Assembly: GCF_040054535.1 (NCBI RefSeq)
Contig: NC_090777.1
Coordinates: 15,787,501 to 15,851,500, forward strand
Length of the DNA stretch: 64,000 bases
Reading direction: 5' to 3'
Origin: Antennarius striatus
Taxonomy: Eukaryota > Chordata > Actinopteri > Lophiiformes > Antennariidae
Shown here: in pieces, positions 5,505 through 56,800 of the stretch
Position numbering within the stretch: position 1 is the first letter of the stretch
How the letters are laid out: the number at the start of each line of letters is the position of its first letter
Position numbers and translations under genes: made by a program
The notes under the pieces: generated by a model
What the model was told of the DNA's origin: nothing
Database searches by the model: none
The model's input: only the letters and a program-made list of their open reading frames with translations

Positions 5505-5507
5505 TTC

Positions 5508-11009: not shown

Positions 11010-11046
11010 CTCCAGCATCTTGCACACGTCGTCGGGCCGACGATTC

Positions 11047-11062
11047 AAAAAGTGGGGGTAGG
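11047..11062 (+). other. Polypurine tract of Gypsy element
   Basis: AAAAAGTGGGGGTAGG ends immediately before the 3' LTR. This is the expected place and composition for plus-strand DNA priming. Confidence -1.
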
Positions 11063-12462
11063 TGTAGCCAGAGGCTATTTTCCCCCCTGTCACTGTTTGG
11101 CACTGTGTCAGCCTTTTACGCACAGCTGTGGCGCACTGATGGGGGGGGCGGTGCTACGCACACTGTTATATTCAGGTGCGTGCGGTCGCGCCCGCTCTCC
11201 CCTGCTCCTCGTGCACTCCCGTAGTGGCTGTGGCTCAGCGTGGCCGCAAATTGTTTGGCGTGGCATCGGCAGCTCAGTTTCCCCAGACGGCTTCCCATTT
11301 GGGTGGTTTGAACCTGTCGTGTGGTCGCCATTTAGGTACCCAACCGTCTCGCCCAGGTAAGCACCCTGCCATCTTTCCCTCCTGTGGGTGCGTAATGCGC
11401 ACTGTGGTGACGCGATCTCCACCTGTTCCAGTGTGGCTGGCTGTCGGGGGCCGAGGGAGAGGGGCTGACCTGTGTGGAGCTCTGCTCAGCGCGTCTGTCT
11501 ACCTGCCCGCTCTGGTATGTTAGTTTGCGCTTTGTCCGCCTTCGTTTGCTGTGTTTCCATGCACCAGCTCATTAACATCTCTGTGTAAATCCCAGGCTGT
11601 GTACCCCAGGCGTGTTTGAGACGCACATCCTCCCGTTGCCTGGGGTGTGCTGTGCTTGCGGCGCGCTGGCCATTACAGGACACCACGGACCACTACTCCT
11701 TGGGCCACGCTGCTACCCTGGCTCTTCTCATTAGCCCTGGCTCTTCTCATTAGCCCTGGCCTTTTTTTTATAATGGCTTAGTCTTGGCCCTTTTATACTG
11801 GTTTTATTTCATACTGGCCCTCTTAACCATTTTATTGAAGTATGGCACATTTGATTTTGGATTATTTGGCTCTTTGACTTTACTTTTGTTCATTTGGTTC
11901 TTATTTTGGTTCTGTTCTTATTTTGGTTAATTCATTCTCAGTTACATTTTGTTATTTACCATTAGTTTATTGAATTAGTTTGTATATTTAAATCATGTGA
12001 ATTATCATTTAGTCCACACCAGTTTGTGCTGTTCTGTTGTTTTAATTGTTTTTCCTTTTCTGTTAGGTGCTGCGGGCTGACAGCGGCAGTTTTATCCTTG
12101 GTGGTGGCGCGTTCTTCACGATCCCTTTTTTTGGTTTGAGTGTGTGCAGTGTCACTGGGTGATTCGTTTGATTTTGGTTGTCCCTGCCGCTTGGTAAGCC
12201 TGGAGCCCCAGCCCTTATTTCCTTTTGACCCCAGTGCTCACCCTATAGTACGGCATAACTGGTGTGTGCCACATATTGTATTATTTTAATTCTTTTGTTA
12301 ATAAAAATTTGTTTGTTTTAATGGAAAACAGTCTCGCCCCAGTGGTATAACGGACCTGTGTGATCAATCTGAGTTTAGGATTTCCTGGGGTGCAATTCCC
12401 CAGGTGGCGTTGTCGACTCAATTCCGGTATTCCTCACCACCCCATACTCTGCTCTCGCCACA
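11063..12462 (+). mobile_element. 3' LTR of Ty3/Gypsy element
   Basis: 1,400 bp, TGTAGCC...GCCACA, practically identical to the 5' LTR, including an AATAAA at 12300-12305. It is followed by AGAG (12463-12466), the probable target duplication. Unlike the 5' side, the 61-bp U5 unit is present once here. Confidence -1.
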
Positions 12463-12466
12463 AGAG

Positions 12467-18500: not shown

Positions 18501-20139
18501 TACATTTACCAGAATGAGAATTTTAGAAAATCTAATGTTCATTCTCTGCTTCATTGCTGTGTTCTACGCTTCCCTAGAAGAGCACAACAAATGACATGCT
18601 GTACCTTCATGATAATCCACAGCAGTATAACTGTGTTCGTGCAGCAGCTCCTCCACGCGGCTGAGTGTGATGGCAGCAAGGTGGCCTGGATATTTCAGCT
18701 GTAGTAAACGCTGCAGGTAGAACGCTGCCTGACTCCCAGCGACATTCACACGCTTACAGTTCGCTGCGTCCAACCTGGAGGAAAAGCATGTTAAAAATTT
18801 AAACTCAGGAAAACCAGGGGTGTAAAATGCAAACATGATATTAATAGAATTCAAAACAACCACAAATTGCTATAAAATAAACTTTGAAAGGGCGAGTGGA
18901 ACAAAGGAACTCTCACTTGCTGTTGATAACTGGCAGAATGTGTGAGCAATGGTATCCTGAGGACAGAACGATGCCAGTGTGTGGAGGCCGGACGTTCCGC
19001 TGCGTGTTGTTGTGGTAGAAACTGTACAAGCTGTCCACACCATAGGAGACATACGGGACGTTATAGCACTCAAACAGCAGCTCCGACATCATCTGCCGAC
19101 AGTGCAGTGGGTTAGAGGGAGCCTCAGTCAGCACAATGGGATGTTCAACTCTGCCCTGTAAAAGCAGAGAAGAGGAAAGTAACGGTGACTGATTATCTGA
19201 TTAGTCGCTGGCGTTACATATAAAACAGTAATGGGAGATTATTATACGACAATATTAATGGAATGTTTGATGATCTGAACTTGTTCTATAGAACATCTGG
19301 TGAATTATACAAATAGAACATTACAGGTAAAAGAACTATTTCCTCTGAGGCAGTTTGAGACACTTTCATGCTGACCAGCTGACATTAGTAATGTAATTCA
19401 TGAAATTGAGATTCAAAATATTTATGACTCTTTATGTTCAATACGATTCAGAGACAGAACTGACGTGAAGGAATGTGTCTTATTTTACTTGTAAGTTGGT
19501 AAAAGGTTTTGCATCCCACCTAGAAACACTTCACAAACTATCAACAGGATTGAGATCACCAGAGGACAGAATGATGTCCAGAATGATGCTTTGAGTTAAT
19601 GACAAAAGAATCCTTTGACAGCATAGAAACAAAATCAATTGTTTGCTAAATGGTTTAAGAAACTCTCTCTACTTTCTTCTGAGACGACACAGAAAAAAAT
19701 TCTTCCATTTTCATAAAAAGAGAAGTCATGACAGAAGTAACGGTCTACCACTAACCTCTGAGGCGACGCCCAGGTGAGAAAACACATAATCGAAAATGAG
19801 CTCCTGGATCTCGAAATTCACCACCACGTTTCGGTCGAACTGGCTCTTCAGCAGCCACCGCAGCGGCTCCAGGTTCGGAATATCGTTCCCGATCTGGGTC
19901 TCGCTGCGGGCAGCGCCTCTGCTGCGCGCCGCCACCGACCGAAACAGCAGCCTCGGAGAGTCAAAGTCCGCCTCCGGAGCCGCCCAGCCGGCCCGGGTCT
20001 GAAAAGATCCGTTATCGATCACTATCGGTACCGGTGCGTGGGTTCGGCACTGCGTGGGCAGCTCAAAGATGGGATCCGGGTGGTATTTAACGTCCTGAAA
20101 CGAGAAGATTTGACCAAGCGGTTCATTGATAGAGGCCAT
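15567..20139 (-). CDS. actr5: Actin-related protein 5 (INO80 complex subunit), complete
   Basis: Nine coding exons on the minus strand: 20139-19756, 19155-18917, 18774-18605, 18425-18208, 17358-17194, 16810-16706, 16489-16350, 16188-16056, 15896-15567. All joints keep the frame, giving 627 residues (human ACTR5 is about 607). Landmarks: actin-fold start [13 protein letters not shown] in exon 1; H-P-I-V-L-T-E-A and [12 protein letters not shown] in exon 2; G-S-Q-A-A in exon 3; a charged Arg/Glu/Gln-rich coiled-coil insertion in exons 4-5; F-L-T-G-G-N in exon 8; D-A-W-Y-G-A-R-D-W in exon 9. ARP5 works in the nucleus in INO80 nucleosome sliding. Most donors are canonical; exon 8 uses the weak AAG|GTCGTC, chosen because it matches the family. 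Intron 4 carries a mariner-type MITE. Confidence -1.
17423..18095. mobile_element. Non-autonomous mariner/Tc1-type element (MITE)
   Basis: 673 bp in ACTR5 intron 4, flanked by TA at 17421-17422 and 18096-18097. The left end CAGGCAAACCTCGGTTTCCGA and the reverse complement of the right end, CAAGCAAACCTTGGTTTTCGA, form 21-base imperfect terminal inverted repeats. TA target duplication and such ends are typical of Tc1/mariner. No transposase frame remains. Confidence -1.
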
Positions 20140-22289: not shown

Positions 22290-24586
22290 ATGGCATGGAT
22301 TAAATCACTAAGGAGAAGAGTTTGGGATAAATTAAGTGGAGGAGCAACTCCTGCCAACTTTGAGGTAAGCCATGCTTTCAGTTTATTTTATTTTTTTTGT
22401 TTTAGGAGTGTCTTGTTGGGTTTCTTTGTCGATTGAAGTGCTTTGTCTGCTGAGTGATTAATTTTATATAGCTAGCTAGCTAGCTAGCTAGCTTGATAGA
22501 GATAGCTAGGTAGAGAGCTAGATAGCTAGCTAGCTAGATAGCTAGGTAGAGAGCTAGATAGGTAACTAGCTAGATGGATAGATAGACAGTAGCCAGATAG
22601 ATAGATAAATAGATATAAAGATAGCAAGATAGCTAGATAACTAGCTAGAGAGATAGCTAGATAGTTAGCGAGATAGCTATATAGAACAAAAATAGCTAGT
22701 TAGACAGATAGCTAGATAGACAGATAGCTAGATAGCTAGTCAGACAGACAGACAGACAGACAGACAGACAGTAGCTAGATAGATAGATAAATAGATATAA
22801 AGATAGCAAGATAGCTAGATAACTAGCTAGAGAGATAGCTAGATAGTTAGTGAGATAGCTATATTGAACATAGATAGCTAGTTAGACAGATAGCTAGATA
22901 AATAGCTAGTCAGACAGACAGACAGGCAGTAGCTAGATAGATAGATAAATAGATATAAAGATAGCAAGATAGCTAGATAACTAGCTAGAGAGATAGCTAG
23001 ATAGTTAGTGAGATAGCTATATTGAACATAGATAGCTAGTTAGACAGATAGCTAGATAAATAGCTAGTCAGACAGACAGACAGGCAGTAGCTAGATAGAT
23101 GGATAAATAGATATAAAGATAGCAAGATAGCTAGATAACTAGCTAGAGAGATAGCTAGATAGCTAGATAGACAGATAGCTAGATAGCTAGTCACACAGAC
23201 AGACAGACAGTAGCTAGATAGGTAGATAGAAAGATAGCTAGATAGCTAGCTAGAGAGATAGCTAGATACTGTAGCTAGCCAGTTAGCTATATTGAAGATA
23301 GATAGCTAGTTACACAGATAGCTAGATAGACAGATAGCTAGATAGCTAGTCAGATAGACAGACAGGCAGATGGATAGCTAGATGGATAGATAGACAGTAG
23401 CCAGATAGATAGATAAATAGATATAAAGATAGCAAGATAGCTAGATAACTAGCTAGAGAGATAGCTAGATAGTTAGCGAGATAGCTATATAGAACAAAAA
23501 TAGCTAGTTAGACAGATAGCTAGATAGACAGATAGCTAGATAGCTAGTCAGACAGACAGACAGACAGACAGTAGCTAGATAGATAGATAAATAGATATAA
23601 AGATAGCAAGATAGCTAGATAACTAGCTAGAGAGATAGCTAGATAGTTAGCGAGATAGCTATATAGAACATAGATAGCTAGTTAGACAGATAGCTAGATA
23701 GACAGATAGCTAGATAGCTAGTCACACAGACAGACAGACAGTAGCTAGATAGATAGATAAATAGATATAAAGATAGCAAGATAGCTAGATAACTAGCTAG
23801 AGAGATAGCTAGATAGTTAGCGAGATAGCTATATTGAACATAGATAGCTAGTTAGACAGATAGCTAGATAAATAGCTAGTCAGACAGACAGACAGGCAGT
23901 AGCTAGATAGATAGATAAATAGATATAAAGATAGCAAGATAGCTAGATAACTAGCTAGAGAGATAGCTAGATAGCTAGATAGACAGATAGCTAGATACTG
24001 TACCTAGCCAGTTAGCTATACTGAAGATAGATAGCTAGTTACACAGATAGCTAGATAGACAGATAGCTAGATAGCTAGTCAGATAGACAGACAGGCAGAT
24101 GGATAGCTAGATGGATAGATAGACAGTAGCCAGATAGATAGATAAAAGGATATAAAGATAGCAAGATAGCTAGATAACTAGCTAGAGAGATAGCTAGATA
24201 GTTAGCGAGATAGCTATATAGAACAAAAATAGCTAGTTAGACAGATAGCTAGATAGACAGATAGCTAGTCAGACAGACAGACAGACAGTAGCTAGATAGA
24301 TAGATAAATAGATATAAAGATAGCAAGATAGCTAGATAACTAGCTAGAGAGATAGCTAGATAGACAGATAGCTAGATAGCTAGTCACACAGACAGACAGA
24401 CAGTAGCTAGATAGGTAGATAGAAAGATAGCTAGATAGCTAGCTAGAGAGATAGCTAGATACTGTAGCTAGCCAGTTAGCTATACTGAAGATAGATAGCT
24501 AGTTACACAGATAGCTAGATAGACAGATAGCTAGATAGCTAGTCAGATAGACAGACAGTAGCTAGATAGATAGATAGATAGATAGC

Positions 24587-24617
<31 letters not shown>

Positions 24618-24693
24618 CTAGAGAGATAGCTAGATACTGTAGCTAGCCAGTTAGCTATATTGAAGATAGATAGCTAGTTAGATAGCTAGTTAC

Positions 24694-24734
<41 letters not shown>

Positions 24735-25906
24735 CGGATGGATGGACAAATAGATATTTTGTTAATACTGGAGGAAAATATGTCATTACATAACATACAA
24801 ATTGGATAAAATTGTGTATTGTGAAAACATTAATAACATAAAATTGTGTTTTATGTTATCAAGTCCTGTCCTGATGTGCTGGTTTTTATTTGTACAAAAT
24901 TCTATAATTGGTTTTCCATGTTCCTTAGTTACGTTAAACTAGGCTACCTCAAACACACTAGTTGGAAGGACAATATCTTTCGGCTTGCCTGGGAATGCAT
25001 ATGTTTTATGTTATCAAGTCTTGTCCTGGTTGTGCTGGTTTTTATTTGTGTTAAATTCTATAATTGTTTTTCTCCATATTCCTTAGCTAAGCTAAGCTAC
25101 CTTAAATACATTTGCTGGAGGGACTATGTCTAACGGCTTGCCTGGGAATGCGTGTGTTTTATGTTATCAAGTCCTGTCCTGGTAGTGCTTGTATTTATTT
25201 GTACAAAATTATATAATTGATTTTCTCCATATTCTTTAGCTAAGCTCAGCTAAGCTACCTTAAATACACTAGCTGGAGGGACAATGTCTCTCAACTGGCC
25301 TGGAAACGCGTGTGTTTTATGTTATCAAGTCCTGTCCTGGTTGTGCTGGTTTTTATTTGTACAAAATTATGTAATGGTTTTCCATATTCCTTAGCTAAAC
25401 TAAGCTACCTTAAACAGACTAACTCTAACCATAACCTACCCCCACCTCCACCCCATGAAGGCCTGGCCTCTGCTCTTTCTACAGCATGCCCAAGCACGGT
25501 TGTGTACTGTACATTATACAGAGTAAAAGAAATGTTTTAAACATATTTGGCTCTGGTGACGGTAAACCAAGTGGTGCAATTTACATCATTTTGTGAACTA
25601 TAGTGTTGTATATATTGATTTAAATTGTGTGTTTATTTGAGTTATTTTCCTGAAAATGTTATGTCACGAAAGAGAAAATACCTATCCTTGGTGAAAATAA
25701 TAGTGAAAAATGATAATAAGTGAAAATCGATCAGAAATTAACCGTCTTTTAGCTTTACATGCAAAAGTCTCTTATTTACGTGACTGCACTCGAACGCATT
25801 TCAGGTGAGGTTCCCCACAATAGAGGAGAAGGCTCAGCGGTTGGACTTTAAAACAGCTTGCTACTGTTACACTCGAGAAGAATCGAACCCTTCCTTACTG
25901 TTTTGA
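22290..25906 (+). CDS. Candidate two-exon small protein (58 aa) or 5' exons of the tandem-exon gene
   Basis: Exon A, 22290-22364, has ATG, 25 codons (MAWIKSLRRRVWDKLSGGAT, then PANFE) and a strong GAG|GTAAGC donor. A TTTCAG acceptor before 25805 opens a frame of 33 codons (VRFPTIEEKAQRLDFKTACY and onward) ending TGA 25904-25906; the joint is in phase. Exon A could equally join the acceptor at 30109, which is also phase 0. An upstream ATG at 22277 starts an eight-codon overlapping frame. No family is recognised. Support is the promoter motif, the splice sites and the phase agreement only, so existence is plausible rather than secure. Confidence -1.
22471..24741. repeat. TAGC/TAGA satellite with higher-order repeats
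   Basis: About 2.3 kb made almost only of 4-mers TAGA, TAGC and CAGA. It is not a plain microsatellite: a complex unit of roughly 160-180 bases (marker GATAAATAGATATAAAGATA) recurs about ten times, e.g. near 22605, 22785, 22945, 23415, 23585, 23755, 23915 and 24305, with block deletions. AGCTAGCT stretches are self-complementary. It lies downstream of candidate exon A. Confidence -1.
24847..25430 (+). repeat. Four-copy ~155-bp tandem repeat with LINE-like segment
   Basis: The word TGTTTTATGTTATCAAGT starts at 24847, 25002, 25155 and 25313. Each of the first three full units carries a GGA..GACNATRTCT..CNTGCCTGGGAATGC-like segment resembling the LINE 3' region at about 47000-47045. It has open frames but no coding signature. 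Confidence -1.
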
Positions 25907-25929
25907 GAGACGATTCTGAGTGTTGGATT

Positions 25930-26965
25930 ACTTTATGACACGAAAACGTGACTATTATGGACGCGGTGACAGGTAGGCCGGAAGCCTGTCCACGAGGCGA
26001 GAGCGTCATCATTCAGCTTTTATTTTAATCGTGTAAATAAGGAGATCGTTTGGGAACACTACCCTGGAGCCTGGCGGTATTTATTAACGATTTATTGTGC
26101 ACCGAAGAATGGACTGAGATAGTAATGCGAAGACAAAGGTGTACGGATTTATACCCCAAACACACTAACACAGGAAAGTTATATGCAAGAGGCCTGACAT
26201 ATCTTCTAATGGTGAATTATAACGTTTCATATTTTACTGATGCTTTATGATGAAACGGGCTTACAGCTGAGATTGATGCGATTGTGTTTGACTCGAGTTG
26301 GTTAGGATAATGTTTCCTATGTTCACCGGTAACCGGACGTGCTCATGATGCTTAGTACCCCTGGCAATAGTATTGGCATTATTATATTTGTATTTATGGT
26401 CCGACATCTGAATAGAGAATATGTTTGAGTCTTAATCGGTTTTATTTGTGGTTTGTTATGAAGCTACAATTGTAAAGATCTCATGCTTCCTTGTTATTGT
26501 GAAGGACAAATATAAGAATGTGATTACTTTTGTGCACGTAACATGACTATTACGGCACTATTAATAACGTGACGACAAGTACCTTAGAGACTACATATAT
26601 TCGTGATGTATTTGTTGTGCGCCCCAGAAGCAGTTAAGGGTTCAACGTGTGATTAAATGTGTACGGAGTCAAACTCCAGACACACAAAGCCATATTTTCT
26701 GGCAGTGAGTCATGACGTTTCTTAATTTTACCAATACTAAAGAGTTTACGGCTGGGATCGATGTGATTGCGGTAAGTTGTGCGCGGATTTGACTACTGGC
26801 TAGTATAATGTTAACTGTTAGCTGCTAACAGGACATGTTAATAAAGTTGATAAAGTAAATTTAGCTGTAATATTTGGGGTCGCTCTTAGTATTTATGGTC
26901 CGACAACTGAATGGAGAGGATGTTCGAGTGTGACAAGGTTTTATTTGGGGTTTGTCAGCTAAGCA
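25930..26965. repeat. Diverged tandem duplication of ~0.5 kb
   Basis: Segments of 25935-26460 recur in order in 26530-26960: GTGACTATTATGG / ATGACTATTACGG, GTGTACGGATTTATACCCCA / GTGTACGGAGTCAAACTCCA, and GGTCCGACATCTGAATAGAG / GGTCCGACAACTGAATGGAG. Spacing between matches falls from about 595 to 499 bases, so the copies have different indels. Function unknown. Confidence -1.
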
Positions 26966-27297: not shown

Positions 27298-29045
27298 AAT
27301 TTAGTTTAGTTTATTTGTTTAGCACATGTTCAGTACAAGTACAAAAACTGTGCAAGGTGGGAACGAAGCCTTATTAGGCTTGTACAGAGTTCCACACCTG
27401 CCTGTATCAAATTTAAGACATGTAGGCCAAACAATCAACTGAAGAAAACAACAAAAAATTGCGTATTCCAAAAACAAGAAGGCAGCAAAGACAAATCACG
27501 CACAATCAGTACAAAAAATGGATTAACACATCTGTCAGAAGAACAAATGCAAAGATCAGGAAGACAGAAGTATTTTTTTAGACAATTTTTGAAAACAGAG
27601 AAGGAGGATATTGATCGCAGTGTTGGGCTTAATTCACTCCAGAGCTTAGAACCTCTAAAAGTGATGTTGAATTGGTGTTTTGAAGGTCGGTATATGGTAA
27701 AAGTAGACTGTTGTTGCTATATGTAGTTTGATATGTATGGACATGTGTAGTGGGGGTGAATACATTCTGTAGGGTGACTGGAAGTTCTTGATTCCTATAT
27801 ATAAATTTGTGTGTGAATAAGCATGTTTGATAAATATTTATTTTGTCAATGGATAGTACCTGGTATTTGTTGAATAGGGGTGCCGAGGGTGCATATCTGT
27901 TAGAGTGAGGAATCATTCTAAGGTATTTTTTTTGTATGACACATAGTTTTCTTAAGTATGTAGGATATGTAGCTGCCCAGACGATGTTGCAGTAATTGAT
28001 GAATGGAAACATAAAACTAATATAAAGTTAAGTGAGCTGTGGAGTGAATTAAGTGACAGACCTTTCTCAATATGCCGAGCATTTTTGCAGACCTTCTTGA
28101 GTCAAGGTCAATATGATCAGACCATTTGAGACTGCTATCTATAATAACTCCTAAAAATTTTGTACGGTGAACTAATTCTATTTCAGCATTATTAATAATT
28201 ATTCTGGCTAAATCTATGGGATAATGTTTGTTTGTATTACAGAAGATCATGAAATTACATTTTTTCACATTGAGGGTGAGTTTGTTCAAATGAAACCATT
28301 TTGCGATAGAAGATAATTCTTGATTGACGGTTTGAATTAAAATAATGAAATCTTTGTGTGAAGTTACAAGGTTGGTATCATCTGCAAATAATACTGGGAG
28401 GAGTTTGGTGCATGTCATGGCCATATCGTTAATATAAATTAAAAATAATAAAGGGCCCAGGATTGATTCTTGGGGAACACCATACGATATTGATAATTTC
28501 TTGGAGGAAAAACCAGCTAGATGGACATATTGTTCTCGATTTGTGAGATAGTTTCTGAACCATTTCAGGGCAATATCCTCCACTCCATATCTATTTAGTT
28601 TTGCGATCAATATGTCATGACTAACCGTATCAAATGCCTTACTCAGATCCAAGAACACTCCTAGGGCAAATGTTTTATTATCAAGAGCTGATGAGATATA
28701 ATTAACGAGTTGTATAAGGGCGTGTTCAGTGGAATGATTTTTGCGAAAACCATATTGGTGTTGATATACTGTAGAATATTGTTGACTGCTAGGTGATTTG
28801 ATAATCTGGAATAGATTAGTTTTTCCAAGATTTTGGATATGGATGGTAGAATAGATATTGGCCTGTAATTGCTGAATTCCTTGGAGTTGCCTGTCTTGAA
28901 AATGGGTATAACTTTTGCAATTTTTAAGTCCTGGGGGACATTTCCAGTTTTGAGAGACAGAGAGAGGATATGAGTGAGGGGTTTGATAATGTAGTCAATA
29001 GTCTCCTTAAGAAGGACACTCTTAATGATATGGTGAACTGATGCT
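27298..29045 (-). mobile_element. Degenerate non-LTR retrotransposon (L2/CR1-like LINE), 5'-truncated
   Basis: Minus-strand frame 28658-28017 is reverse transcriptase: D-L-S-K-A-F-D-T-V-S-H-D, W-F-R-N-Y-L, G-V-P-Q-E-S-I-L-G-P-L-L-F and F-A-D-D-T. Upstream (29040-28690) another frame gives A-K-V-I-P-I-F-K and N-Y-R-P-I-S-I-L-P. Downstream the frame shifts at about 28015 into the usual C-terminal tail (28012-27629). At least two frameshifts and a missing endonuclease make it inactive. The 3' end is an AAATAAACTAAACTAAAT tail near 27298. Clade assignment is approximate. Confidence -1.
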
Positions 29046-30108
29046 GTTAAATCATTTGTATAGAAAATACACCAGGAAACTATTCAGTTGTCAGCTTGAA
29101 CAGCATTTGTGGTAAATTAGACAAATAACTCATATATATACAAAGATGACATAAACATCACTGATGCTTGAATAACACTAGCTATGAATACTGTTTTCCC
29201 CTATGGTGAACTTCTCTGTGAAAGACTTTGAAATGTGGTGAAGCCTGATTTTGCTGTAACATGTAAACACACTTGATGAACTGAACGATATACATCTTAA
29301 GCATTGTTCATCATGTGATCTGCAACAGAGCAGTCCTCAATATCTGATTTTTAGCCCATCCAGATTGATATCGGAAGTCTCTTTTGTAGTCTGAACTGTC
29401 CCATACCACATGAAATTTGATTTTTGCGGGACAGATTGAAACTGCATTCGGGAGGTAGTTTTGTATTGGACATGGACAGATGCGTCTCAATCTGAAGAGC
29501 TCCAAACATAATGATCGGATATGGCAGTCCATTACGCCACTGTACATGATGCAAGAGCAACGCACTAGAAGGAAGAGCGACGCATTACAGAGCAGTAAAA
29601 AATGGATATAGAAGTTGACAATGTCTCTTGTGTCACAGATTTTCTCCATCTCTACTAGACAGTGGCACTGCCAATACACTAAGGTAAACAACGTCCATGA
29701 TTGTCATCATTGTTGCCGTCGTTGCAGTTATATGACCTCACACATTACACGCACTGAACAATGCCTCCGCCCCGACTTGCTGCTACAGCAACCTGTCAGA
29801 TCGGCCAATAATGTGGCCCAGTCTGAACAGAGCAAGATTGCATTTGGACACTTGCTAAAAACAGTCAGCCCAGAAATCAGGTATGGAAAGAAATCTGATT
29901 GGTATCTGATTTGCCTGCAGTCTGAACAGAGCAAAATAGCGCCCTTCAGTACCTCCCATTATAACTGTTAAAAATAGATCAGACCTTGTAATGAATGGAT
30001 TTTTTTCAACAATGACTTGCTGTTGTGATGTTATTGTTTTTGTGATATATCCCATGAAATTACCAAAGCTATACATGTCTATTTTGACATTTCATCTCCT
30101 CTTTCAAG

Positions 30109-33100
30109 GGTCTTGAAACATCTACACGGTCATGTCACTCTAGTGTTCATGCAACAATGAGCCGTAGGAAGGCCCCTGAAACAGATGCGATTGAACATGC
30201 AGCGAAAGAGCTTTACAAAACTGGAGAGTTGGAAGTAAAGGTTTGTAAAGGTTCCTCAGGCTATGGAACAGGAAACTTTGGCCGGAACCTCTGAAGTTAA
30301 GCTTGTCATCGACACTGAGGAGGAAGCACTGGACTGCCCACCCTCACCAAACAAGGTACCACTTGTTAGTTTAAGGCTTAAACACTCAGATGTCAGGTTC
30401 GAGGTATTTGAGGGGACTGTGTGCACTGTTCCTGATGGGTGGGGGATGGGCCAGTTTCTTGCTGATTTGATAGCAAGCACACTGTCACATGTCAGGTGAG
30501 AGGTATTTGTGGGGACCCCGTGAGGTGGTTGATATAAAGCACATTTACTGATTTGCTAGCAAACACACTGTCACATGTCAGGTGAGAGGTACTTGTGGGG
30601 ACTCCGTGAGGCAGTTAATATGATGCATGGTTGTAGACATTAATTTAGCCTTTTTTGTCCATGGACTCAGAGAATCCTTTTGCATTCTATATTGTTTTTA
30701 TATTGCACATAATTGTTTAGCTTAACATAAATTTTATGGTGATTAAAGTACTGATGTTAATGTTGAAATTTTTCCTCAGACTGGAACAGGAAACTTTGGC
30801 TGGAACCTCTGAAGCTAAGCTTGTCATCGACACTGAGGAGGAAGCACTGGACTGCCCACCCTCACCAAACAAGGTACCACTTGTTAGTTTAAGGCTTACC
30901 TGGTTTATTAAATGTCAAACTAATTGTGCTTGAAAAGGGCAGTAGGTTAGTTATACTCTTAAAGTTGCTGTTAAGCACACTCTCAGATGTCAGGTCCGAG
31001 GTATTTGAGGGGACTTTGCAACTGTTCCTGATGGGTGGGGGATGGGCCAGTTTCTTGCTGATTTGCTAGCAAGCACACTGTCACATGTCAGGTGAGAGGT
31101 ATTTGTGGGGACCCCGTTTGGTGGTTGATATAAAGCACATTTAATGAGAGTGATTTACTGTTTTTGCCCATGAAGTGGGAAGAATCTTTTGCTTGCCATG
31201 AGACAGTTAATGTGACCAGAGATCAGAACTGGTTTTCACATGAGCTTGTAGATACAGATTGGTTTCCTTGGCCCATGCTTGACCACTACATGTTGTTACC
31301 CATAATTAGTCATTACTGTGTAACTGTGAGTTATATTCATGTAATAAAAGTTATAGCAGTGGTTAGTATTTGTATTGTATTAACATCAAGGTGAAATCTA
31401 TTCAGGATACATCTATTTTACTCCCAAGCACACTCAAGTGTCAGTTAAAAGGTATTTGTGGGGACTCCGTGAGGCAGTTAATATGATGCATGGTTGTAGA
31501 CATTAATTTAGCCTTTTTTGTCCATGGACTCAGAGAATCCTTTTGCATTCTATATTGTTTTCATATTGCACATAATTGTTTAGCTTAACATAAATATTAT
31601 GGTGATTAAAGTACTGATGTTAATGTTGAAATTTTTCCTCAGACTGGAACAGGAAACTTTGGCTGGAACCTCTGAAGCTAAGCTTGTCATCGACACTGAG
31701 GAGGAAGCACTGGACTGCCCACCCTCACCAAACAAGGTACCACTTGTTAGTTTAAGGCTTACCTGGTTTATTAAATGTCAAACTAATTGTGCTTGAAAAG
31801 GGCAGTAGGTTAGTTATATTCTTAAAGTTGCTGTTAAGCACACTCTCAGATGTCAGGTTCGAGGTATTTGAGGGGACTGTGTGCACTGTTCCTGATGGGT
31901 GGGGGATGGGCCAGTTTCTTGCTGATTTGCTAGCAAGCACACTGTCACATGTCAGGTGAGAGGTATTTGTGGGGACCCCGTTTGGTGGTTGATATAAAGC
32001 ACATTTAATGAGAGTGATTTACTGTTTTTGCCCATGAAGTGGGAAGAATCTTTTGCTTGCCATGAGACAGTTAATGTGACCAGAGATCAAAACTGGTTTT
32101 CACATGAGCTTGTAGATACAGATTGGTTTCCTTGGCCCATGCTTGACCACTACATGTTGTTACCCATAATTAGTCATTACTGTGTAACTGTGAGCTATAT
32201 TCATATAATAAAAGTTATAGCAGTGGTTAGTATTTGTATTGTATTAACATCAAGGTGAAATCTATTCAGGATACATCTATTTTACTCCCAAGCACACTCA
32301 AGTGTCAGTTAAAAGGTATTTGTGGGGACTCCGTGAGGCAGTTAATATGATGCATGGTTGTAGACATTAATTTAGCCTTTTTTGTCCATGGACTCAGAGA
32401 ATCCTTTTGCATTCTATATTGTTTTTATATTGCACATAATTGTTTAGCTTAACATAAATTTTATGGTGATTAAAGTACTGATGTTAATGTTGAAATTTTT
32501 CCTCAGACTGGAACAGGAAACTTTGGCTGGAACCTCTGAAGCTAAGCTTGTCATCGACACTGAGGAGGAAGCACTGGACTGCCCACCCTCACCAAACAAG
32601 GTACCACTTGTTAGTTTAAGGCTTACCTGGTTTATTAAATGTCAAACTAATTGTGCTTGAAAAGGGCAGTAGGTTAGTTATACTCTTAAAGTTGCTGTTA
32701 AGCACACTCTCAGATGTCAGGTCCGAGGTATTTGAGGGGACTTTGCAACTGTTCCTGATGGGTGGGGGATGGGCCAGTTTCTTGCTGATTTGCTAGCAAG
32801 CACACTGTCACATGTCAGGTGAGAGGTATTTGTGGGGACCCCGTGAGGTGGTTGATATAAAGCACATTTAATGAGAGTGTTTTACTGTTTTTGCCCGTGA
32901 AGTGGGAAGAATCTTTTGCTTGCCATGAGACAGTTAATGTGACCAGAGATCAAAACTGGTTTTCGCATGAGCTTGTAGATACAGATTGGTTTCCTTTGCC
33001 CACGCTTGACTACTACATGTTGTTACCCATAATTAGTCATTACTGTGTAACTGTGAGCTATATTCATGTAATAAAAGTTATAGCAGTGGTTAGTATTTGT

Positions 33101-36100
33101 ATTGTATTGACATCAAGGTGAAATCTATTCAGGATACATCTATTTTACTCCCAAGCACACTCAAGTGTCAGTTAAAAGGTATTTGTGGGGACTCCGTGAG
33201 GCAGTTAATATGATGCATGGTTGTAGACATTAATTTAGCCTTTTTTGTCCATGGACTCAGAGAATCCTTTTGCATTCTATATTGTTTTCATATTGCACAT
33301 AATTGTTTAGCTTAACATAAATTTTATGGTGATGAAAGTACTGATGTTAATGTTGAAATTTTTCCTCAGACTGGAACAGGAAACTTTGGCTGGAACCTCT
33401 GAAGCTAAGCTTGTCATCGACACTGAGGAGGAAGCACTGGACTGCCCATCCTCACCAAACAAGGTACCACTTGTTAGTTTAAGGCTTACCTGGTTTATTA
33501 AATGTCAAACTAATTGTGCTTGAAAAGGGCAGTAGGTTAGTTATATTCTTAAAGTTGCTGTTAAGCACACTCTCAGATGTCAGGTTCGAGGTATTTGAGG
33601 GGACTGTGTGCACTGTTCCTGATGGGTGGGGGATGGGCCAGTTTCTTGCTGATTTGCTAGCAAGCACACTGTCACATGTCAGGTGAGAGGTATTTGTGGG
33701 GACCCCGTTTGGTGGTTGATATAAAGCACATTTAATGAGAGTGATTTACTGTTTTTGCCCATGAAGTGGGAAGAATCTTTTGCTTGCCATGAGACAGTTA
33801 ATGTGACCAGAGATCAAAACTGGTTTTCACATGAGCTTGTAGATACAGATTGGTTTCCTTGGCCCATGCTTGACCACTACATGTTGTTACCCATAATTAG
33901 TCATTACTGTGTAACTGTGAGCTATATTCATATAATAAAAGTTATAGCAGTGGTTAGTATTTGTATTGTATTAACATCAAGGTGAAATCTATTCAGGATA
34001 CATCTATTTTACTCCCAAGCACACTCAAGTGTCAGTTAAAAGGTATTTGGTGGTTGATATAAAGCACATTTAATGAGTGTTTTACTGTTTTTGCCCATGA
34101 AGTGGGAAGAATCTTTTGCTTGCCATGAGACAGTTAATGTGACCAGAGATCAAAACTGGTTTTCACATGAGCTTGTAGATACAGATTGGTTTCCTTGGCC
34201 CATGCTTGACCACTACATGTTGTTACCCATAATTAGTCATTACTGTGTAACTGTGAGTTATATTCATGTAATAAAAGTTATAGCAGTGGTTAGTATTTGT
34301 ATTGTATTAACATCAAGGTGAAATCTATTCAGGATACATCTATTTTACTCCCAAGCACACTCAAGTGTCAGTTAAAAGGTATTTGTGGGGACTCCGTGAG
34401 GCAGTTAATATGATGCATGGTTGTAGACATTAATTTAGCCTTTTTTGTCCATGGACTCAGAGAATCCTTTTGCATTCTATATTGTTTTCATATTGCACAT
34501 AATTGTTTAGCTTAACATAAATTTTATGGTGATTAAAGTACTGATGTTAATGTTGAAATTTTTCCTCAGACTGGAACAGGAAACTTTGGCTGGAACCTCT
34601 GAAGCTAAGCTTGTCATCAACACTGAGGAGGAAGCACTGGACTGCCCACCCTCACCAAACAAGGTACCACTTGTTAGTTTAAGGCTTACCTGGTTTATTA
34701 AATGTCAAACTAATTGTGCTTGAAAAGGGCAGTAGGTTAGTTATACTCTTAAAGTTGCTGTTAAGCACACTCTCAGATGTCAGGTTCGAGGTATTTGAGG
34801 GGACTTTGCAACTGTTCCTGATGGGTGGGGGATGGGCCAGTTCCTTACTGATTTGCTAGCAAGCACACTGTCACATGTCAGGTGAGAGGTATTTGTGGGG
34901 ACCCCGTGAGGTGGTTGATATAAAGCACATTTAATGAGAGTGATTTACTGTTTTTGCCCGTGAAGTGGGAAGAATCTTTTGCTTGCCATGAGACAGTTAA
35001 TGTGACCAGAGATCAAAACTGGTTTTCGCATGAGCTTGTAGATACAGATTGGTTTCCTTTGCCCATGCTTGACCACTACATGTTGTTACCCATAATTAGT
35101 CATTACTGTGTAACTGTGAGCTATATTCATGTAATAAAAGTTATAGCAGTGGTTAGTATTTGTATTGTATTGACATCAAGGTGAAATCTATTCAGGATAC
35201 ATCTATTTTACTCCCAAGCACACTCAAGTGTCAGTTAAAAGGTATTTGTGGGGACTCCGTGAGGCAGTTAATATGATGCATGGTTGTAGACATTAATTTA
35301 ACCTTTTTTGTCCATGGACTCAGAGAATCCTTTTGCATTCTATATTGTTTTCATATTGCACATAATTGTTTAGCTTAACATAAATTTTATGGTGATTAAA
35401 GTACTGATGTTAATGTTGAAATTTTTCCTCAGACTGGAACAGGAAACTTTGGCTGGAACCTCTGAAGCTAAGCTTGTCATCGACACTGAGGAGGAAGCAC
35501 TGGACTGCCCACCCTCACCAAACAAGGTACCACTTGTTAGTTTAAGGCTTACCTGGTTTATTAAAAGTCAAACTGTTTGTGCATGAAAGGGGCAGTAGGT
35601 AATTTATACTCTTAAAGTTGTTGTTAAGCACACTCTCAGATGTCAGGTCCAAGGTATTTGAGGGGGCTGTGGCAACTGTTCCTGATGGGTGGGGGATGGG
35701 CCAGTTTCTTGCTGATTTGCTAGCAAGCACACTGTCACATGTCAGGTGAGAGGTATTTGTGGGGACCCCGTGAGGTGGTTGATATAAAGCACATTTAATG
35801 AGAGTGTTTTACTGTTTTTGCCCGTGAAGTGGGAAGAATCTTTTGCTTGCCATGAGACAGTTAATGTGACCAGAGATCAAAACTGGTTTTCGCATGAGCT
35901 TGTAGATACAGATTGGTTTCCTTTGCCCACGCTTGACTACTACATGTTGTTACCCATAATTAGTCATTACTGTGTAACTGTGAGCTATATTCATGTAATA
36001 AAAGTTATACCAGTGGTTAGTATTTGTATTGTATTGACATCAAGGTGAAATCTATTCAGGATACATCTATTTTACTCCCAAGCACACTCAAGTGTCAGTT

Positions 36101-38074
36101 AAAAGGTATTTGTGGGGACTCCGTGAGGCAGTTAATATGATGCATGGTTGTAGACATTAATTTAGCCTTTTTTGTCCATGGACTCAGAGAATCCTTTTGA
36201 ATTCTATATTGTTTTCATATTGCACATAATTGTTTAGCTTAACATAAATTTTATGGTGATTAAAGTACTGATGTTAATGTTGAAATTTTTCCTCAGACTG
36301 GAACAGGAAACTTTGGCTGGAACCTCTGAAGCTAAGCTTGTCATCGACACTGAGGAGGAAGCACTGGACTGCCCACCCTCACCAAACAAGGTACCACTTG
36401 TTAGTTTAAGGCTTACCTGGTTTATTAAAAGTCAAACTGTTTGTGCATGAAAGGGGCAGTAGGTAATTTATACTGTTAAAGTTGTTGTTAAGCACACTCT
36501 CAGATGTCAGGTCCAAGGTATTTGAGGGGGCTGTGGCAACTGTTCCTGATGGGTGGGGGATGGGCCAGTTTCTTGCTGATTTGCTAGCAAGCACACTGTC
36601 ACATGTCAGGTGAGAGGTATTTGTGGGGACCCCGTGAGGTGGTTGATATAAAGCACATTTAATGAGAGTGTTTTACTGTTTTTGCCCGTGAAGTGGGAAG
36701 AATCTTTTGCTTGCCATGAGACAGTTAATGTGACCAGAGATCAAAACTGGTTTTCGCATGAGCTTGTAGATACAGATTGGTTTCCTTTGCCCACGCTTGA
36801 CTACTACATGTTGTTACCCATAATTAGTCATTACTGTGTAACTGTGAGCTATATTCATGTAATAAAAGTTATAGCAGTGGTTAGTATTTGTATTGTATTG
36901 ACATCAAGGTGAAATCTATTCAGGATACATCTATTTTACTCCCAAGCACACTCAAGTGTCAGTTAAAAGGTATTTGTGGGGACTCCGTGAGGCAGTTAAT
37001 ATGTTGCATGTTGAAAGACATTAGTTTAGCCTAGTATGTACATGGATGTAAAAATCTATTCAAGATACATTCATTTTACTAATGAGCACACGCATTATGC
37101 GTGTGTAAGGTTGTGCAGTTATCAGTTTACTTCCTACCTTGTGATTCAATTTTGATCGTATTTACCACATTCTTTTTTTTTTTTGTCATGCGTCATTCAG
37201 TGTATTGTTGTTGTTTTTATAGGATTTCAGATGACTCTGACACCCAGCCCACATAGGAAATGTTTTTATTGAATTCTTTTATTGTGAACTATGTAGTGTC
37301 TTAGGTGTAAAGATGTCAGTCAAAGCTTTCAGGCATTATAATTCTATGTTTATGTTTCCAAGCTGTTTTTGTCTTTTGCTACACTGGTTCGAATTAAAAT
37401 TACATAACATTCGCTTGAACTTCCATACAGACTGGAAATCCAAAGAATCCATTCTCCAAACATTGCCTTTACAATCAAAACCAGGCTGAGAAGGACAAAA
37501 AGCATACAGGTAAAGAACACAACTTTAGCATAACAATAGTGCATGTACTACATATTTCTTTATTCATATTGTTCATCAAATATTCATTGTTAAGGACAAT
37601 TTTAGATTCTAATTCAGTTTTGTTTTGTTTTTCTGAAGATCTTATCAAGATGACACATTAGTGTCATTAGTGTAGGTTAGCATCCTACAGATTCTGTCTT
37701 TATCAAAATTTTACTTTGCAATATAATCTCGTCTGGTTTTCAGAATGTCCAGTTGTCAGATCAAGCCAGAGAAGAGAGACAGAGACCAAAGTGCCAGATG
37801 TAAACGATAATATTGCAAAAACAGCGGAGGACAATAATAATAATACAGCAATGGAGCAGGACACTGTAACACCTTCACAAAGCTACCGTTGCCTCTCACC
37901 AGAAAGGAAAGGACGTAAGGTTTCTAAGAGTATTTCTGTCACACAACTTTCAGCCTATGATTGTAGAATACTGATGGCATTAAAGTAACAGAAGTGTGTA
38001 TGTTTAACTGTTTAATAGGCCTGCATCCTTTCAAGAGACGGCCGTGGCAAACAGAGGAGATACTTGCAGTTTAA
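30109..38074 (+). CDS. Uncharacterised gene with tandemly amplified exon and truncated C-terminal domain
   Basis: Exon-by-exon reading: 30109-30240 (acceptor CTTTCAAG, phase-0 frame with ATG at 30157); the array exon (eight copies, see separate entries); 37431-37509; 37744-37914; 38019-38074. From the array exon's AAG end onward every joint is in frame: ...CPPSPNK, then TGNPKNPFSKHCLYNQ..., then ECPVVRSSQRRETETK..., then RLHPFKRRPWQTEEILAV and TAA. The encoded chain is acidic, then Asn/Glu-rich and probably disordered, ending in a basic W-x-x-E-E-x-x-A-V start of a Myb/SANT-like domain. The rest of that domain lies after the stop. An AATAAA at about 38464 fits a 3' end. No function is assigned; it may be an expressed truncated gene or a pseudogene. 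How the 5' exon enters the array in phase is unresolved. Confidence -1.
30260..30355 (+). other. Founder copy of the amplified exon
   Basis: 96 nt between TTCCTCAG and AAG|GTACCA, reading A-M-E-Q-E-T-L-A-G-T-S-E-V-K-L. It differs from array copies by GCTATGG for ACTGG at the 5' edge (giving its own ATG at 30263), G-C-C for G-C-T, and V for A. It lies only 19 bases after the exon ending at 30240, too close for a normal intron, so it is either a first exon, a fused exon or unused. Its downstream intron lacks about 100 bases present in array copies. Confidence -1.
30780..36990 (+). repeat. Seven-copy tandem array of an 863/864-bp exon-plus-intron unit
   Basis: 94-nt exon copies at 30780-30873, 31643-31736, 32507-32600, 33370-33463, 34570-34663, 35433-35526 and 36297-36390. 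Spacing is 863, 864, 863, 1200, 863 and 864. Each has TTTTTCCTCAG before it and GTACCA after it. The coding version reads L-E-Q-E-T-L-A-G-T-S-E-A-K-L-V-I-D-T-E-E then E-A-L-D-C-P-P-S-P-N-K. Only two exon substitutions were noticed: P to S in copy 4 (33370) and D to N in copy 5 (34570). Introns are nearly as similar, so amplification is recent. Copies 6 and 7 share distinctive intron changes, suggesting stepwise duplication. The last unit decays after about 36990. Confidence -1.
34050..34386 (+). repeat. Extra partial array unit without exon
   Basis: The interval between exon copies 4 and 5 is 337 bases longer than the others. A second copy of the intron segment that includes CCCATGAAGTGGGAAGAATC follows a GGTATTTGGTGGTTGATAT junction, where two GGTATTTG-containing sub-repeats have recombined. 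Confidence -1.
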
Positions 38075-50139: not shown

Positions 50140-52376
50140 ATGGCTCACCTCATCCGACACAAGCTGACCAACAAGCTGACCAACGCGGCCCACACGGTGT
50201 CCAACAAATCCCAGGCCAAGGTCAGCGGGGTGTTCGCCCGGCTGGGCTTCCAGGCCGCCACGGACGAGGAGGGTTTGGGCTTTGCAGAGTGCGACGACTT
50301 GGATTATGACTACAGGCAAGGGATGCAAATGGATGTCCTCCAGGGAGAGGAGGACGGGAGGCACATGAACGGAGAGGGGGAAATGGACGGGGACAGCCAC
50401 TACCAGAGGGACGGCACCGGTCGGAGGCCCTCCACCCTCAAGACAGGAGGGTCCCTGGAGGAGGACAAGCCCAAAATCACGACGTGGGAAGCTGGCTGGA
50501 ACGTCACCAATGCTATTCAGGTATTGTGGGATTACATCCATCCTGAATGTGCTGTTTTAGATTAAGATTAGGCCTGCAAAATGTCACCTTGAAGATTTTC
50601 ACATTTATAGGTGAAAACAAAGATGAGAGTCAGACTAAAAACGCTGCATTAAATAATGGCGCTAAGATGATGTGGAGTTTTTGATTGTATTAAAGATTGT
50701 ATAAATAAATTGTCAGAATATGAGTGATTTCATGGTAACCGACTGTTCCTATATGTATTTATTCAAATCTCTTTATCAGTGGGGCTGCAGGCAGGGCCTG
50801 CTGGATTTTGATTGTCCTGCACCTCAGTTCTTATCGGCGTTTAAATCAAATTAAAATAAAAATCCAACCAATTACAATTCTTTTGTGTGTGTAACGCCTT
50901 AATTCAAGTGTTAATTCAACCTACAGCATATACAAGTGAAATATCTTTTTTTTTTTTCACGAGCGAAGCAAATTAGAAATTAATTCCTGCTTGTATGAGT
51001 GATGTTGAAATGAGTCAGCTAAGAAAAATATAAGAAAGAAAAATGCAAAACGTATTATAATTTTATTTCTTGAGTCTTATTCCGGACATGAGCTGCGTGA
51101 GACATTGGTTGCATGCCTGTGCTGCTCGGCCTGTCATTGCGATGTGGGCCTCGTCCATTACCACTCAACTGCGCTTCTCTGTCCGCAGGGCATGTTCGTC
51201 CTCGGCTTGCCGTACGCCATTCTCCATGGCGGATACCTCGGTCTCTTCCTCATTATCTTCGCGGCTGTGGTTTGCTGTTACACCGGCAAAATCCTCATTG
51301 CGTGTCTGTACGAGGACAACGAGGATGGCATCAAAGTGCGCGTCAGGGACTCCTATGTTGACATCGCCAACGCCTGCTGCGCACCCCGCTTCCCATCTCT
51401 GGGCGGCCACGTGGTGAACGTGGCTCAGATCATTGAATTAGTCATGACGTGCATCCTTTACGTCGTGGTCAGCGGGAACCTGATGTACAACAGTTTCCCG
51501 GGCTTCCCCGTCTCCCAGAAAGCCTGGTCTGTGGTGGCCACGATCGCACTCCTGCCCTGCGCATTCCTGAAGAACCTCAAGGCCGTGTCCAAGTTCAGCT
51601 TGCTCTGCACCCTGGCACACTTCGTCATCAATGTTCTGGTGATTGCCTATTGCCTCTCTAGGGCGCGTGAGTGGGCGTGGGAGAAGGTCAAGTTTTATAT
51701 TGATGTCAAGAAATTCCCAATCTCAATTGGCATCATCGTTTTCAGCTACACGTCCCAGATCTTCCTCCCCTCCCTGGAGGGTAACATGCAGAGGCCCAGT
51801 GAGTTCCACTGCATGATGGAGTGGTCTCACATTGCAGCCTGCGTCCTCAAGGGGCTCTTCGCCTTGGTGGCCTACTTGACATGGGCAGATGCTACCAAAG
51901 AGGTCATCACAGATAACCTGCCGTATACCATCAGGGCTGTGGTGAACATCTTCCTCGTCGCCAAAGCATTGCTTTCTTACCCACTGCCGTTCTTTGCTGC
52001 AGTTGAGGTTTTGGAGAAATCATTGTTTCAGGATGGCGGGAGAGCACTCTTCCCTAACTGCTACGGCCCTGGAGGACAATTGAAATCGTGGGGTCTGGCT
52101 CTTCGAATTGGACTTGTAGTTTTCACCCTGCTTATGGCTGTCTTTGTCCCACATTTTGCACTACTTATGGGTTTAACTGGGAGCCTCACCGGTGCTGGTC
52201 TGTGTTTCCTCTTGCCAAGCCTCTTCCACCTTAAACTCCAGTGGAGGAATCTCCAATGGCACCACGTCTTCTTCGACGTTGCCATTTTTGTTATTGGAGG
52301 CATATGCGCCATATCTGGCTTCATCCATTCAATTGAAGGGCTCATAGAGGCGTTCAAGTACAATATCCAAGACTGA
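50140..52376 (+). CDS. slc32a1: Vesicular inhibitory amino acid transporter (VGAT/VIAAT), complete
   Basis: Two coding exons, 50140-50520 and 51189-52376, split in phase 0 at A-I-Q|G-M-F-V-L-G; 522 residues against 525 in human. The start ATG 50140 gives M-A-H-L-I-R-H-K-L and the conserved [14 protein letters not shown] cytosolic segment, then an acidic tail up to the first helix. Exon 2 holds the Aa_trans membrane domain with landmarks [34 protein letters not shown] and [10 protein letters not shown]. It is a proton-coupled antiporter loading GABA and glycine into synaptic vesicles of inhibitory neurons. The two-exon structure matches the vertebrate gene. Neighbouring ACTR5 and BPI/LBP agree with human 20q11.23 synteny. 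Confidence -1.
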
Positions 52377-53897: not shown

Positions 53898-56800
53898 ATG
53901 CTTCCATCTTTGATAACCCTGCTCATTTTCCTCTTTTGTACCTGTGGAGAAAATCCTGCTGTACGATTCATTCTGACTGATAAAGGACTTCAGTACGGTG
54001 AGGTCATGTGTGATGGTGTAATTTATACACTTTTATCCTTTTTAAAGTAGAAATAATGACTTAATGATTTCAAGTGATAAAACTTTATATGTGCTGTTCA
54101 GGAAAGCATGTAGGAGCAGGTTGGGTTCAAGATAAGTTGGGGCTAATCACCCTCCCTGACATCAGTGGTGAAATTCCCATCAGCATCTTTGGCACCTTGG
54201 ACTACACACTAACAGGGTAATGTGTCAGGATAGCACTGCATGCTAACAGGGTAATGTGTCAGGATAGCACTGCATGCTAACAGGGTAATGAGTCAGGATA
54301 GCACTGCATGCTAACAGGGTAATGAGTCAGGATAGCACTAAATCCTAAAGGGGTAATGTGTCAGGATAGCACTGCATGCTAACAGGGTAATGTGTCAGGA
54401 TAGCACTACATGCTAATAGGGTAATGAGTCAGGATAGCACTACACGCTAACAGGGTAATGTGTCAGAGTAGCACTACATGCTAACATGGTAATGTGTTAG
54501 GGTAGCACTACATGCTAACAGGGTAAGTGTCAGGATAGCACCACACGCTAACAGGGTAATGTTTTAGGATAGCACTACATGCTAACAGGGTAATGTGTCA
54601 GAGTAGCACTACATGCTAACAGGGTAATGTGTCAGAGTAGCACTACATGCTAACATGGTAATGTGTTAGGGTAGCACTACATGCTAATATGGTAATGTGT
54701 TAGGGTAACACTACATGCTAACAGGGTAATGTGTCAGGATAGCACTACATGCTAACAAAGTAATGTGTCAGAGTAGCACTACATGCTAACATGGTAATGT
54801 GTCAGAGTAGCACTACACGCTAACAGGGTAACGTGTCAGGGTGCCATCCTGACACATTAACAGGGTAATGTGTCAGGATAGCACTACATGCTAACAGGGT
54901 AGTGTGTCAGAGTAGCACTACATGCTAACAGGGTAAGGTATCAGGGTAACACTACACGCTAACAGGGTCATGTTTCAGGCTAGCACTACATGCTAACAGG
55001 GTAATGTGTCAGGATAGCACCACTACATGCTAACAGGGTAATTTGTCAGGTAGCGCTACATGCTAACATAGTAATGCTTCAGGGTAATGACTGCTGCTGA
55101 CCATACTTTTGATTTAGTTCGTTCAGAGTTCTTCCCAGAACTCAGATCTTCACTCTTACTTTGGTCTTCTCTCTCCTGGCGTCCTCCAGCACCACCATAA
55201 CAAAGTGTGACTTTCCAGAGCCGTCTGTTGAGTTTGATCAGAACGTCACAGGATTTAAGACATCCATCTCCGGCCTCAGCGTTGCAATGACCGGCTCATG
55301 GATGTCACAATATTTATTAATGTGAGTCTTCACTTATTTCTACACAAGTACAAACTCAAAGTCAGTCAACTTTATTGTCAAATGTACCATATATGACATA
55401 CAGCACAGATGAAATTACAATCCTCTCAGACCCACTGGCAGTAAAAAAACACACACAAAAGAACCTCTTTAGTGGGAGAGAGAGGAGCCTATACCAAATA
55501 GGTTTGTCACAGTGAAACCCAACAAAACCCAACAAAACCCTCCAGAGCAAGTATAAGCAACAGTGGAAGGATAAAACTCCCTCATTGAGGAAGAAACTCT
55601 GGGCAGGACCCAGACTGCCCGCCTTGACCGGTTGGGTGGGAAAGGAAATATACTGGGGATAGAGACACGGCAAGGAAAAGAGAGAGACACAGAGAGGGAG
55701 AGAGTGGCATATAGATCAGAATTTCCAGTCCAAATTGTGCTGTAGTTGCTGAAGTGGAGTCGGAATTCCAAAGCCTTTGGATTTCCTGACTTTGATAATT
55801 GTTCCCCACCTGTCAACAAGAAGCACAAAGACAGTATCTTGCGTGGAAAAAGCCTCCCACTCTCCAACAATACTCATTTCTGGTTTGATCTTCCAACAGT
55901 TAGCTTCCATAACAGGGACTGCAGAAAAGTTATCAGAGTAGAAATGGGGTTAATGATTTTTAGCTTTACTCTGAATGAAAGAAAGACGATTAATTAACCA
56001 ACATGAAGCAATTACTGCTTCATGTTGACCACTTAATTTAAACTTAATCCAGAACCCAAAGCAAAAACTTACTTACTTACTAAAATGCAACAAATCTGCC
56101 TCAGCAGTTTACATCTCAAAATAAAGTTAACGTTACGTTAAAACAAGTAGAAAGAGTGGAAAAACAAAATAAACAAGGAATATTTAGTGACGTACCGGGC
56201 AAGATGTTATCACAACATCAAAGAACTTATTTCTTCAAGGTTCCCAAGTTCACTACTGCTGCTGTGACGTTTGCTTGTCTGACGTCATTTATGTATTAAA
56301 GGAAGAGTCTCCATTACTATTTTGTCTATAATTCATTCTCTCTTATATGTGAAACGTCATTGTTTTTTGGCACATCAATACATTTAAAATGGAATTGTTA
56401 TCCCAAATTAAACAGAGTCAGTTTAAACTAGTAGTTTAATGATTGCAAATCAATGAGCGATGAGAGATTTATTATTTCCAACAAGAACGTTCTGTGATCA
56501 ACATCCAGTGCATCTTAATTGTTCTTTAGTGCAGGCATCCCTTACTGCAGAAGGTTCTCTGAATATGTCCACCAACCTGGCCTGACTTTGTCTGTTCCCT
56601 GCGTGTCTAGAGAGAGCACAGGATCATTCAACATTGCTGTGTTTGGTGTGGGTGTGACCTCTGTGTTGAAGTTGGGGAAAGATGCTGATGGACATTTGTC
56701 CATCACCTGTGTCATCTGTGACGCTAATGTTGGAGATGTGGACTTACAGGTCAACGGAGGAATCAGGTAAATTAGAAACAAGGGGGGAAAGGATGAAGTC

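What the first reader, a model, noticed from the sequence alone, without database searches (positions are those of the whole stretch)
30260..36990. Recent tandem amplification of a single coding exon (eight copies)
Seven 94-nt exons plus a founder copy, each with its own acceptor and GTACCA donor, are spaced 863-864 bases apart and nearly identical in both exon and intron. The sequence shows the array and splice sites. In a fish gene this could give a repeat-length polymorphic protein, mutually exclusive choice among near-identical exons, or simple junk expansion. The exact 863/864 spacing and shared intron variants in copies 6 and 7 point to repeated unequal crossing-over.
Basis: partly seen in the sequence, partly recalled or inferred. 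Interest (0 to 1): 0.8.

Follow-up and report, generated by a model that had tools for sequence, protein, structure and literature searches.

The report
Intronic array of frame-breaking exon copies
A vertebrate (probably fish) gene carries seven near-identical copies of one 94-base exon-like block in an intron, apparently made by repeated unequal crossing-over, but the copies break the reading frame, so on this sequence they cannot lengthen the protein and are most likely skipped or lead to non-productive transcripts.

Summary
The array is real: eight 94-nt blocks start at 30262, 30780, 31643, 32507, 33370, 34570, 35433 and 36297, and none elsewhere in the window on either strand. The spacing is not uniform: 518, 863, 864, 863, 1200, 863, 864. 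The 1200 interval holds a 336-nt partial duplication; the 518 interval a shortened intron. Copies 1-7 differ pairwise at 0-2 exon sites; introns of copies 1-6 differ by 0.26-3.64%. Incompatible sites point to exchange between units.

The founder is not a free exon: it runs on from an upstream coding exon (ATG 30157). The copies lack two bases that the founder has, so each is 3n+1 long. Of 127 possible sets of copies, none with three or more is open in any frame; single copies and pairs are open in one frame each. After the upstream ends that I found, the first copy stops ten codons in. A repeat-length protein is excluded on this sequence. A choice among copies offers little: five of seven are identical.

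Best reading: a neutral expansion of an exon tail plus intron, skipped or, if included, poisoning the transcript. Nothing is shown at RNA level. No relative was found. A known kind of event.

The parts
30109..30355 (+). Upstream coding exon that runs into the founder block; acceptor TTTCAAG|G, ATG at 30157 (MSRRKAPETDAIEHAAKELYKTGELEVK...), donor AAG|GTACCA
   Evidence: acceptor 10.6 bits on a recalled matrix; frames; read straight through it stops at TGA 30292, 61 nt before the exon end
30235..30254 (+). 10-nt tandem duplication (9 of 10 bases alike) that breaks the frame between ATG 30157 and the founder frame
   Evidence: read with one unit left out, the frame is open to the last exon, 164 aa
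30262..30355 (+). Founder block u0, 4 ungapped differences from the copies, own ATG at 30263
30780..30873 (+). Copy u1
31643..31736 (+). Copy u2
32507..32600 (+). Copy u3
33370..33463 (+). Copy u4 (P to S in the LEQ frame)
33708..34385 (+). 336-nt intron segment twice in tandem, without exon
34570..34663 (+). Copy u5 (D to N in the LEQ frame)
35433..35526 (+). Copy u6
36297..36390 (+). Copy u7
36990..37094 (+). Right edge: diverged relative of the unit's intron (82% over 57 nt; 73% over 75 nt in a second alignment), trace of an older intron repeat
37431..37509 (+). Next exon, 79 nt, starts in phase 0, donor CAG|GTAAAG
37744..37914 (+). Exon, 171 nt
38019..38074 (+). Last coding stretch, ...LHPFKRRPWQTEEILAV and stop

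Best explanation
A segment made of the 3' part of a coding exon, its donor, and the following intron was duplicated in tandem and then amplified by unequal crossing-over (helped by diverged repeats already in the intron) to seven extra copies. An early copy lost two bases at the exon start, and all seven copies carry this. The copies keep a fair acceptor and a weak donor, but they are out of frame with the upstream exon that I could find. They are most likely skipped; when included they bring a stop ten codons in and should send the mRNA to nonsense-mediated decay. Shown: anatomy, divergence, frames. Inferred: order of events, direction of the two-base change, skipping, decay.
For: Unit structure and spacing; partial 336-nt duplication; exchange between units; older related repeats inside the intron and past the right edge. 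Frames: copies after ATG 30157 (ends 30240, 30234) or after the founder from ATG 30263 stop ten codons into the first copy; leaving all copies out gives 129 aa (donor 30241), 127 aa (donor 30235) or 132 aa from ATG 30263 through the founder. Among copies 1-7, 2 of 94 exon sites and 31 of 606 intron sites vary, Fisher p = 0.30, and both exon changes are missense in the LEQ frame: no sign of selection on the copies. The copies' donor scores 3.8 bits, and 12.8% of GT on the + strand of the window score as well (recalled matrix).
Against: The copies' acceptors score 6.1 bits (5.1% of AG on the + strand score as well), higher than the exon-3 acceptor at 4.6, and are kept in all seven, as one might expect of used exons, although recent duplication alone keeps them. 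The LEQ frame is open in all seven copies and continues in frame into exon 3. With two variable exon sites the selection test has little power. No transcript and no outgroup, so the two-base change is polarised by frame alone. The 10-nt duplication leaves the founder itself out of frame with ATG 30157, so the working form of the gene is uncertain.
Confidence: 0.62

Rival explanations
1. Poison-exon array: the copies are included at a useful rate, and copy number sets how much of the transcript is destroyed.
For: Seven identical acceptor/donor pairs; stop at nt 31-33 of the exon, 61 nt before its end, with further junctions downstream.
Against: Weak donor; no sign of selection on the copies; a block of 3n+1 length carries such a stop by chance in about 77% of cases (own arithmetic for 31 codons).
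Confidence: 0.15
2. Mutually exclusive choice: exactly one copy is used after an unseen upstream exon that ends in phase 2; the shifted-frame stop removes any transcript with two or more copies.
For: Each of the 7 single copies is open in the LEQ frame through to the last exon, and no set of two or more is open in that frame. One 16-nt site before the upstream exon (30080-30095) is 88% complementary to a site in five of the seven units (u1-u5), formally a one-to-many pattern.
Against: No such upstream exon found; five of seven copies are identical, so choice has almost no product. The 16-nt match is short and AT-rich, is missing in u6 and u7, and any chance match to one unit repeats in its copies.
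Confidence: 0.1
3. Repeat-length polymorphic protein: several copies translated in series.
For: Two copies in series are open in one frame (21 of 21 pairs), but then the first is read in a frame (WNRKLW...) other than the LEQ frame.
Against: None of the 99 sets with three or more copies is open in any frame.
Confidence: 0.02
4. Assembly artefact (false tandem duplication or misjoined haplotypes).
For: The 10-nt duplication and the shortened founder intron look irregular; reads were not available.
Against: Units carry distinct variants: intron divergence 0.26-3.64% among u1-u6, with clear groups and a partial duplication.
Confidence: 0.08

Closest known systems
Tandem exon duplication, including unannotated intronic copies (PMC9013439; listing with start of abstract and eight passages seen)
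   Same: Exon sequence copied in tandem inside one gene; the survey reports many unannotated copies.
   Different: Here copies are near-identical, numerous, and out of frame with the upstream exon.
LPA kringle IV-2 copy number array (PMC4378929; listing with start of abstract and five passages seen)
   Same: Intragenic multi-copy unit of exon and intron with little divergence between copies.
   Different: KIV-2 units are 5.5 kb with exons of 160 and 182 bp (paper), together 342 = 3 x 114 (own arithmetic), so they add in frame (that they are all translated is recalled); the 94-nt unit here does not.
Mutually exclusive exon clusters such as Dscam (PMC6071210; listing with start of abstract, 12 of 25 passages, one longer passage)
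   Same: Array of similar exons between other exons.
   Different: Five of seven copies are identical; only a weak, incomplete one-to-many complementarity was seen. The paper says that decay cannot enforce single choice in clusters of more than three because lengths can add up to a multiple of three; here stops in the shifted frames would block that.

Membership tests
Tandem exon duplication | Two or more homologous exon-sized blocks with splice motifs in one gene, same strand | tested here: met
   eight blocks, seven with the same acceptor motif, eight with donor GTACCA
Tandem exon duplication | Blocks are spliced into mRNA | not testable with these tools
   no transcript data held
Repeat-array coding exons (LPA KIV-2 type) | Unit's exon content is a multiple of three, so copies add in frame | tested here: not met
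   94 nt; 0 of 99 sets of three or more copies open in any frame
Mutually exclusive exons | Each alternative fits the flanking phases on its own | tested here: inconclusive
   each copy fits 37431 on the right (7 of 7) but not the upstream ends found on the left; an unseen exon ending in phase 2 is not excluded
Mutually exclusive exons | Alternatives give different sequences | tested here: not met
   five of seven copies identical over 94 nt, two with one change each
Poison exon | Inclusion gives a premature stop more than about 50 nt before a junction | tested here: met
   stop 61 nt before the exon end with the upstream ends found; the 50-nt rule is recalled
Poison exon | Inclusion occurs and lowers mRNA | not testable with these tools
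   no RNA data

The most novel reading that the evidence does not exclude
A copy-number-variable poison-exon array: each 864-nt unit adds one more chance of non-productive splicing, so unequal crossing-over tunes the gene's output; and stops in the shifted frames make any transcript with three or more copies fail whatever their number, a way round the stated limit of decay-based single choice in clusters of more than three exons.
Probability: 0.1. Interest if true: 0.6.

Novelty: new member of a known kind. Interest (0 to 1): 0.3.

Why it matters
It is a clean, young-looking example of how unequal crossing-over multiplies an exon-like unit inside a gene, and a caution: near-perfect exon copies with splice motifs need not be coding. 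If copies are ever included, it would be a natural test of how copy number of a non-productive exon changes expression.

Tried and rejected
Identity of the gene: Pfam gave nothing above its cut-offs for a 132-aa model (best E 0.15) and nothing at all for the upstream ORF. Two protein searches accepted none of 11 candidates at E 0.001 and none of 18 at E 10. PDB gave three matches, best E 0.37. In viral contigs two stretches matched a pattern and none was confirmed. I ran no positive control for how many vertebrate genes these collections hold, so the absence says little. No outgroup could be used.

A shrunken intron (19 nt, 30241-30259) before the founder was weighed against a 10-nt tandem duplication inside one exon. 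The duplication is favoured: 9 of 10 bases match (three overlapping or low-complexity windows of this kind in 2352 flank bases against 0.065 in mononucleotide shuffles; two of the three are this one duplication), and a reading with one unit left out is open over 164 aa. The good look of the copies' acceptor region, which would be natural for a real intron end, keeps the other reading alive.

Docking/selector structure: the inverted-repeat scan gave eight pairs, five of them one 16-nt site against u1-u5; judged weak. Rfam: no match at gathering scores. Literature: searches found no paper; 26 listed 20 of 56, 32 listed 15 of 60, 34 listed 1, 41 listed 2; nothing in these listings names this locus or a like array. 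No paper was read in full; passages of PMC9741552 were also seen. The splice matrices are recalled, rough and human-like.

Full report
Observation. A scan with the modal 94-nt block finds eight places at 30 or fewer ungapped mismatches on the + strand and none on the - strand of the 64 kb. Seven have the same 12 bases before (ATTTTTCCTCAG) and all eight the same 8 after (GTACCACT). Five of the seven copies are identical, two have one change each, and the founder has four. Intervals are 518, 863, 864, 863, 1200, 863 and 864. The 1200 interval holds two copies of a 336-nt intron piece (33708-34385; one search shows eight copies of a 300-nt intron stretch against seven exon copies). The founder's intron lacks two pieces of the unit (alignments).

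How it arose. Introns of u1-u6 differ by 0.26-3.64%. Of 33 variable sites up to unit position 700, ten have u6 and u7 apart from the rest and six u1, u2 and u4. Of 231 pairs of 22 informative sites, 16 are incompatible with one tree, with at least two intervals of recombination. The unit itself holds sub-repeats 71-84% alike, and the intron beyond the array holds faded relatives (82% over 57 nt, 73% over 75 nt). This fits unequal crossing-over in an intron already rich in old repeats, with some exchange between units. I give no age: the rate for this lineage is unknown and exchange resets divergence.

Gene model. Exons at 37431-37509, 37744-37914 and 38019-38074 join in one frame to a stop after ...RRPWQTEEILAV. 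Upstream, an exon starting at 30109 (acceptor 10.6 bits) has ATG 30157 and reads MSRRKAPETDAIEHAAKELYKTGELEVK. It runs into the founder block with room for an intron of 19 nt at most. Between them lies a 10-nt tandem duplication (30235-30254). As the sequence stands, reading straight on stops at 30292, inside the founder; with one unit left out, the frame is open from ATG 30157 through the founder and the later exons, 164 aa. Alternatives on the sequence as it stands are leaving out the founder through donor 30241 or 30235 (129 and 127 aa) or starting at ATG 30263 inside the founder (132 aa). Which is used cannot be told without RNA.

The frame test. Each copy is 94 nt, one more than a multiple of three, and its first frame has a stop at nt 31-33. 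One search took all 127 sets of the seven real copies in genome order, followed by the later exons, in three entering frames: single copies are open to the natural stop in one frame (7 of 7), pairs in one other frame (21 of 21), and sets of three or more in none (0 of 99 sets in each frame). One search gave the same with one modal copy repeated. With the upstream ends found: after end 30240 (one to seven copies) and after the founder read from ATG 30263 (one to seven copies) the stop falls ten codons into the first copy, likewise after end 30234 (one and two copies tried). If the upstream exon is read straight through the founder, the stop already lies in the founder, whatever follows. So the copies cannot lengthen the protein. 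The two bases that the copies lack relative to the founder (ACTGG against GCTATGG) are what puts them out of frame with the upstream reading.

Selection. Among u1-u7, 2 of 94 exon sites and 31 of 606 intron sites vary (gapped columns left out; Fisher p = 0.30). Both exon changes are missense in the LEQ frame. This gives no support for constraint, but with two events the test is weak.

Splice signals. On recalled, rough matrices (two positions mended): copy acceptors 6.1 bits (5.1% of AG on the + strand do as well), copy donor 3.8 (12.8% of GT do as well). Later exons: donors 8.0 and 5.7, acceptors 4.6, 8.2 and 6.5. So the copies' acceptors are ordinary and better than that of exon 3, their donor weaker than both later donors. 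The founder's CAG scores 5.0; it is discounted for its position, 19 nt after the best-scoring donor of the upstream exon, and could serve only from a more distant exon.

Setting. Nearby are the start of ACTR5 on the minus strand at 19728-20139 (four PDB sequences matched, all named Actin-related protein 5, best E 9.6e-38) and an amino-acid transporter of Pfam Aa_trans at 51009-52376 (E 1.6e-95), which I take from memory to be SLC32A1. The gene between them has no recognised relative.

Verdict. A real, recent-looking, intragenic tandem expansion of an exon-like unit. The serial-protein reading fails; the exclusive-choice reading is unsupported though not excluded; the neutral or non-productive reading is best. 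The bold reading, a copy-number-tuned poison array, is not excluded and is testable with long-read cDNA.

Noticed in passing
4102-12465: Two direct repeats of 1406 nt (4102-5507 and 11060-12465), 99.6% identical at a fixed offset, flank ORFs that look gag-like and pol-like (5674-11009): by look a young Ty3/gypsy-type LTR retrotransposon.
   Followed up: partly
27629-28994: Minus-strand ORFs that read like a LINE reverse transcriptase, just upstream of the gene.
   Followed up: no
22468-24756: Very long imperfect ATAG tetranucleotide tract, about 2.3 kb, followed by a 153-158 nt tandem repeat at 24845-25421.
   Followed up: no
25868-26955: Old diverged duplications (64-67% identity) upstream of the gene.
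   Followed up: no
54201-55083: 34-nt minisatellite, about 26 copies.
   Followed up: no
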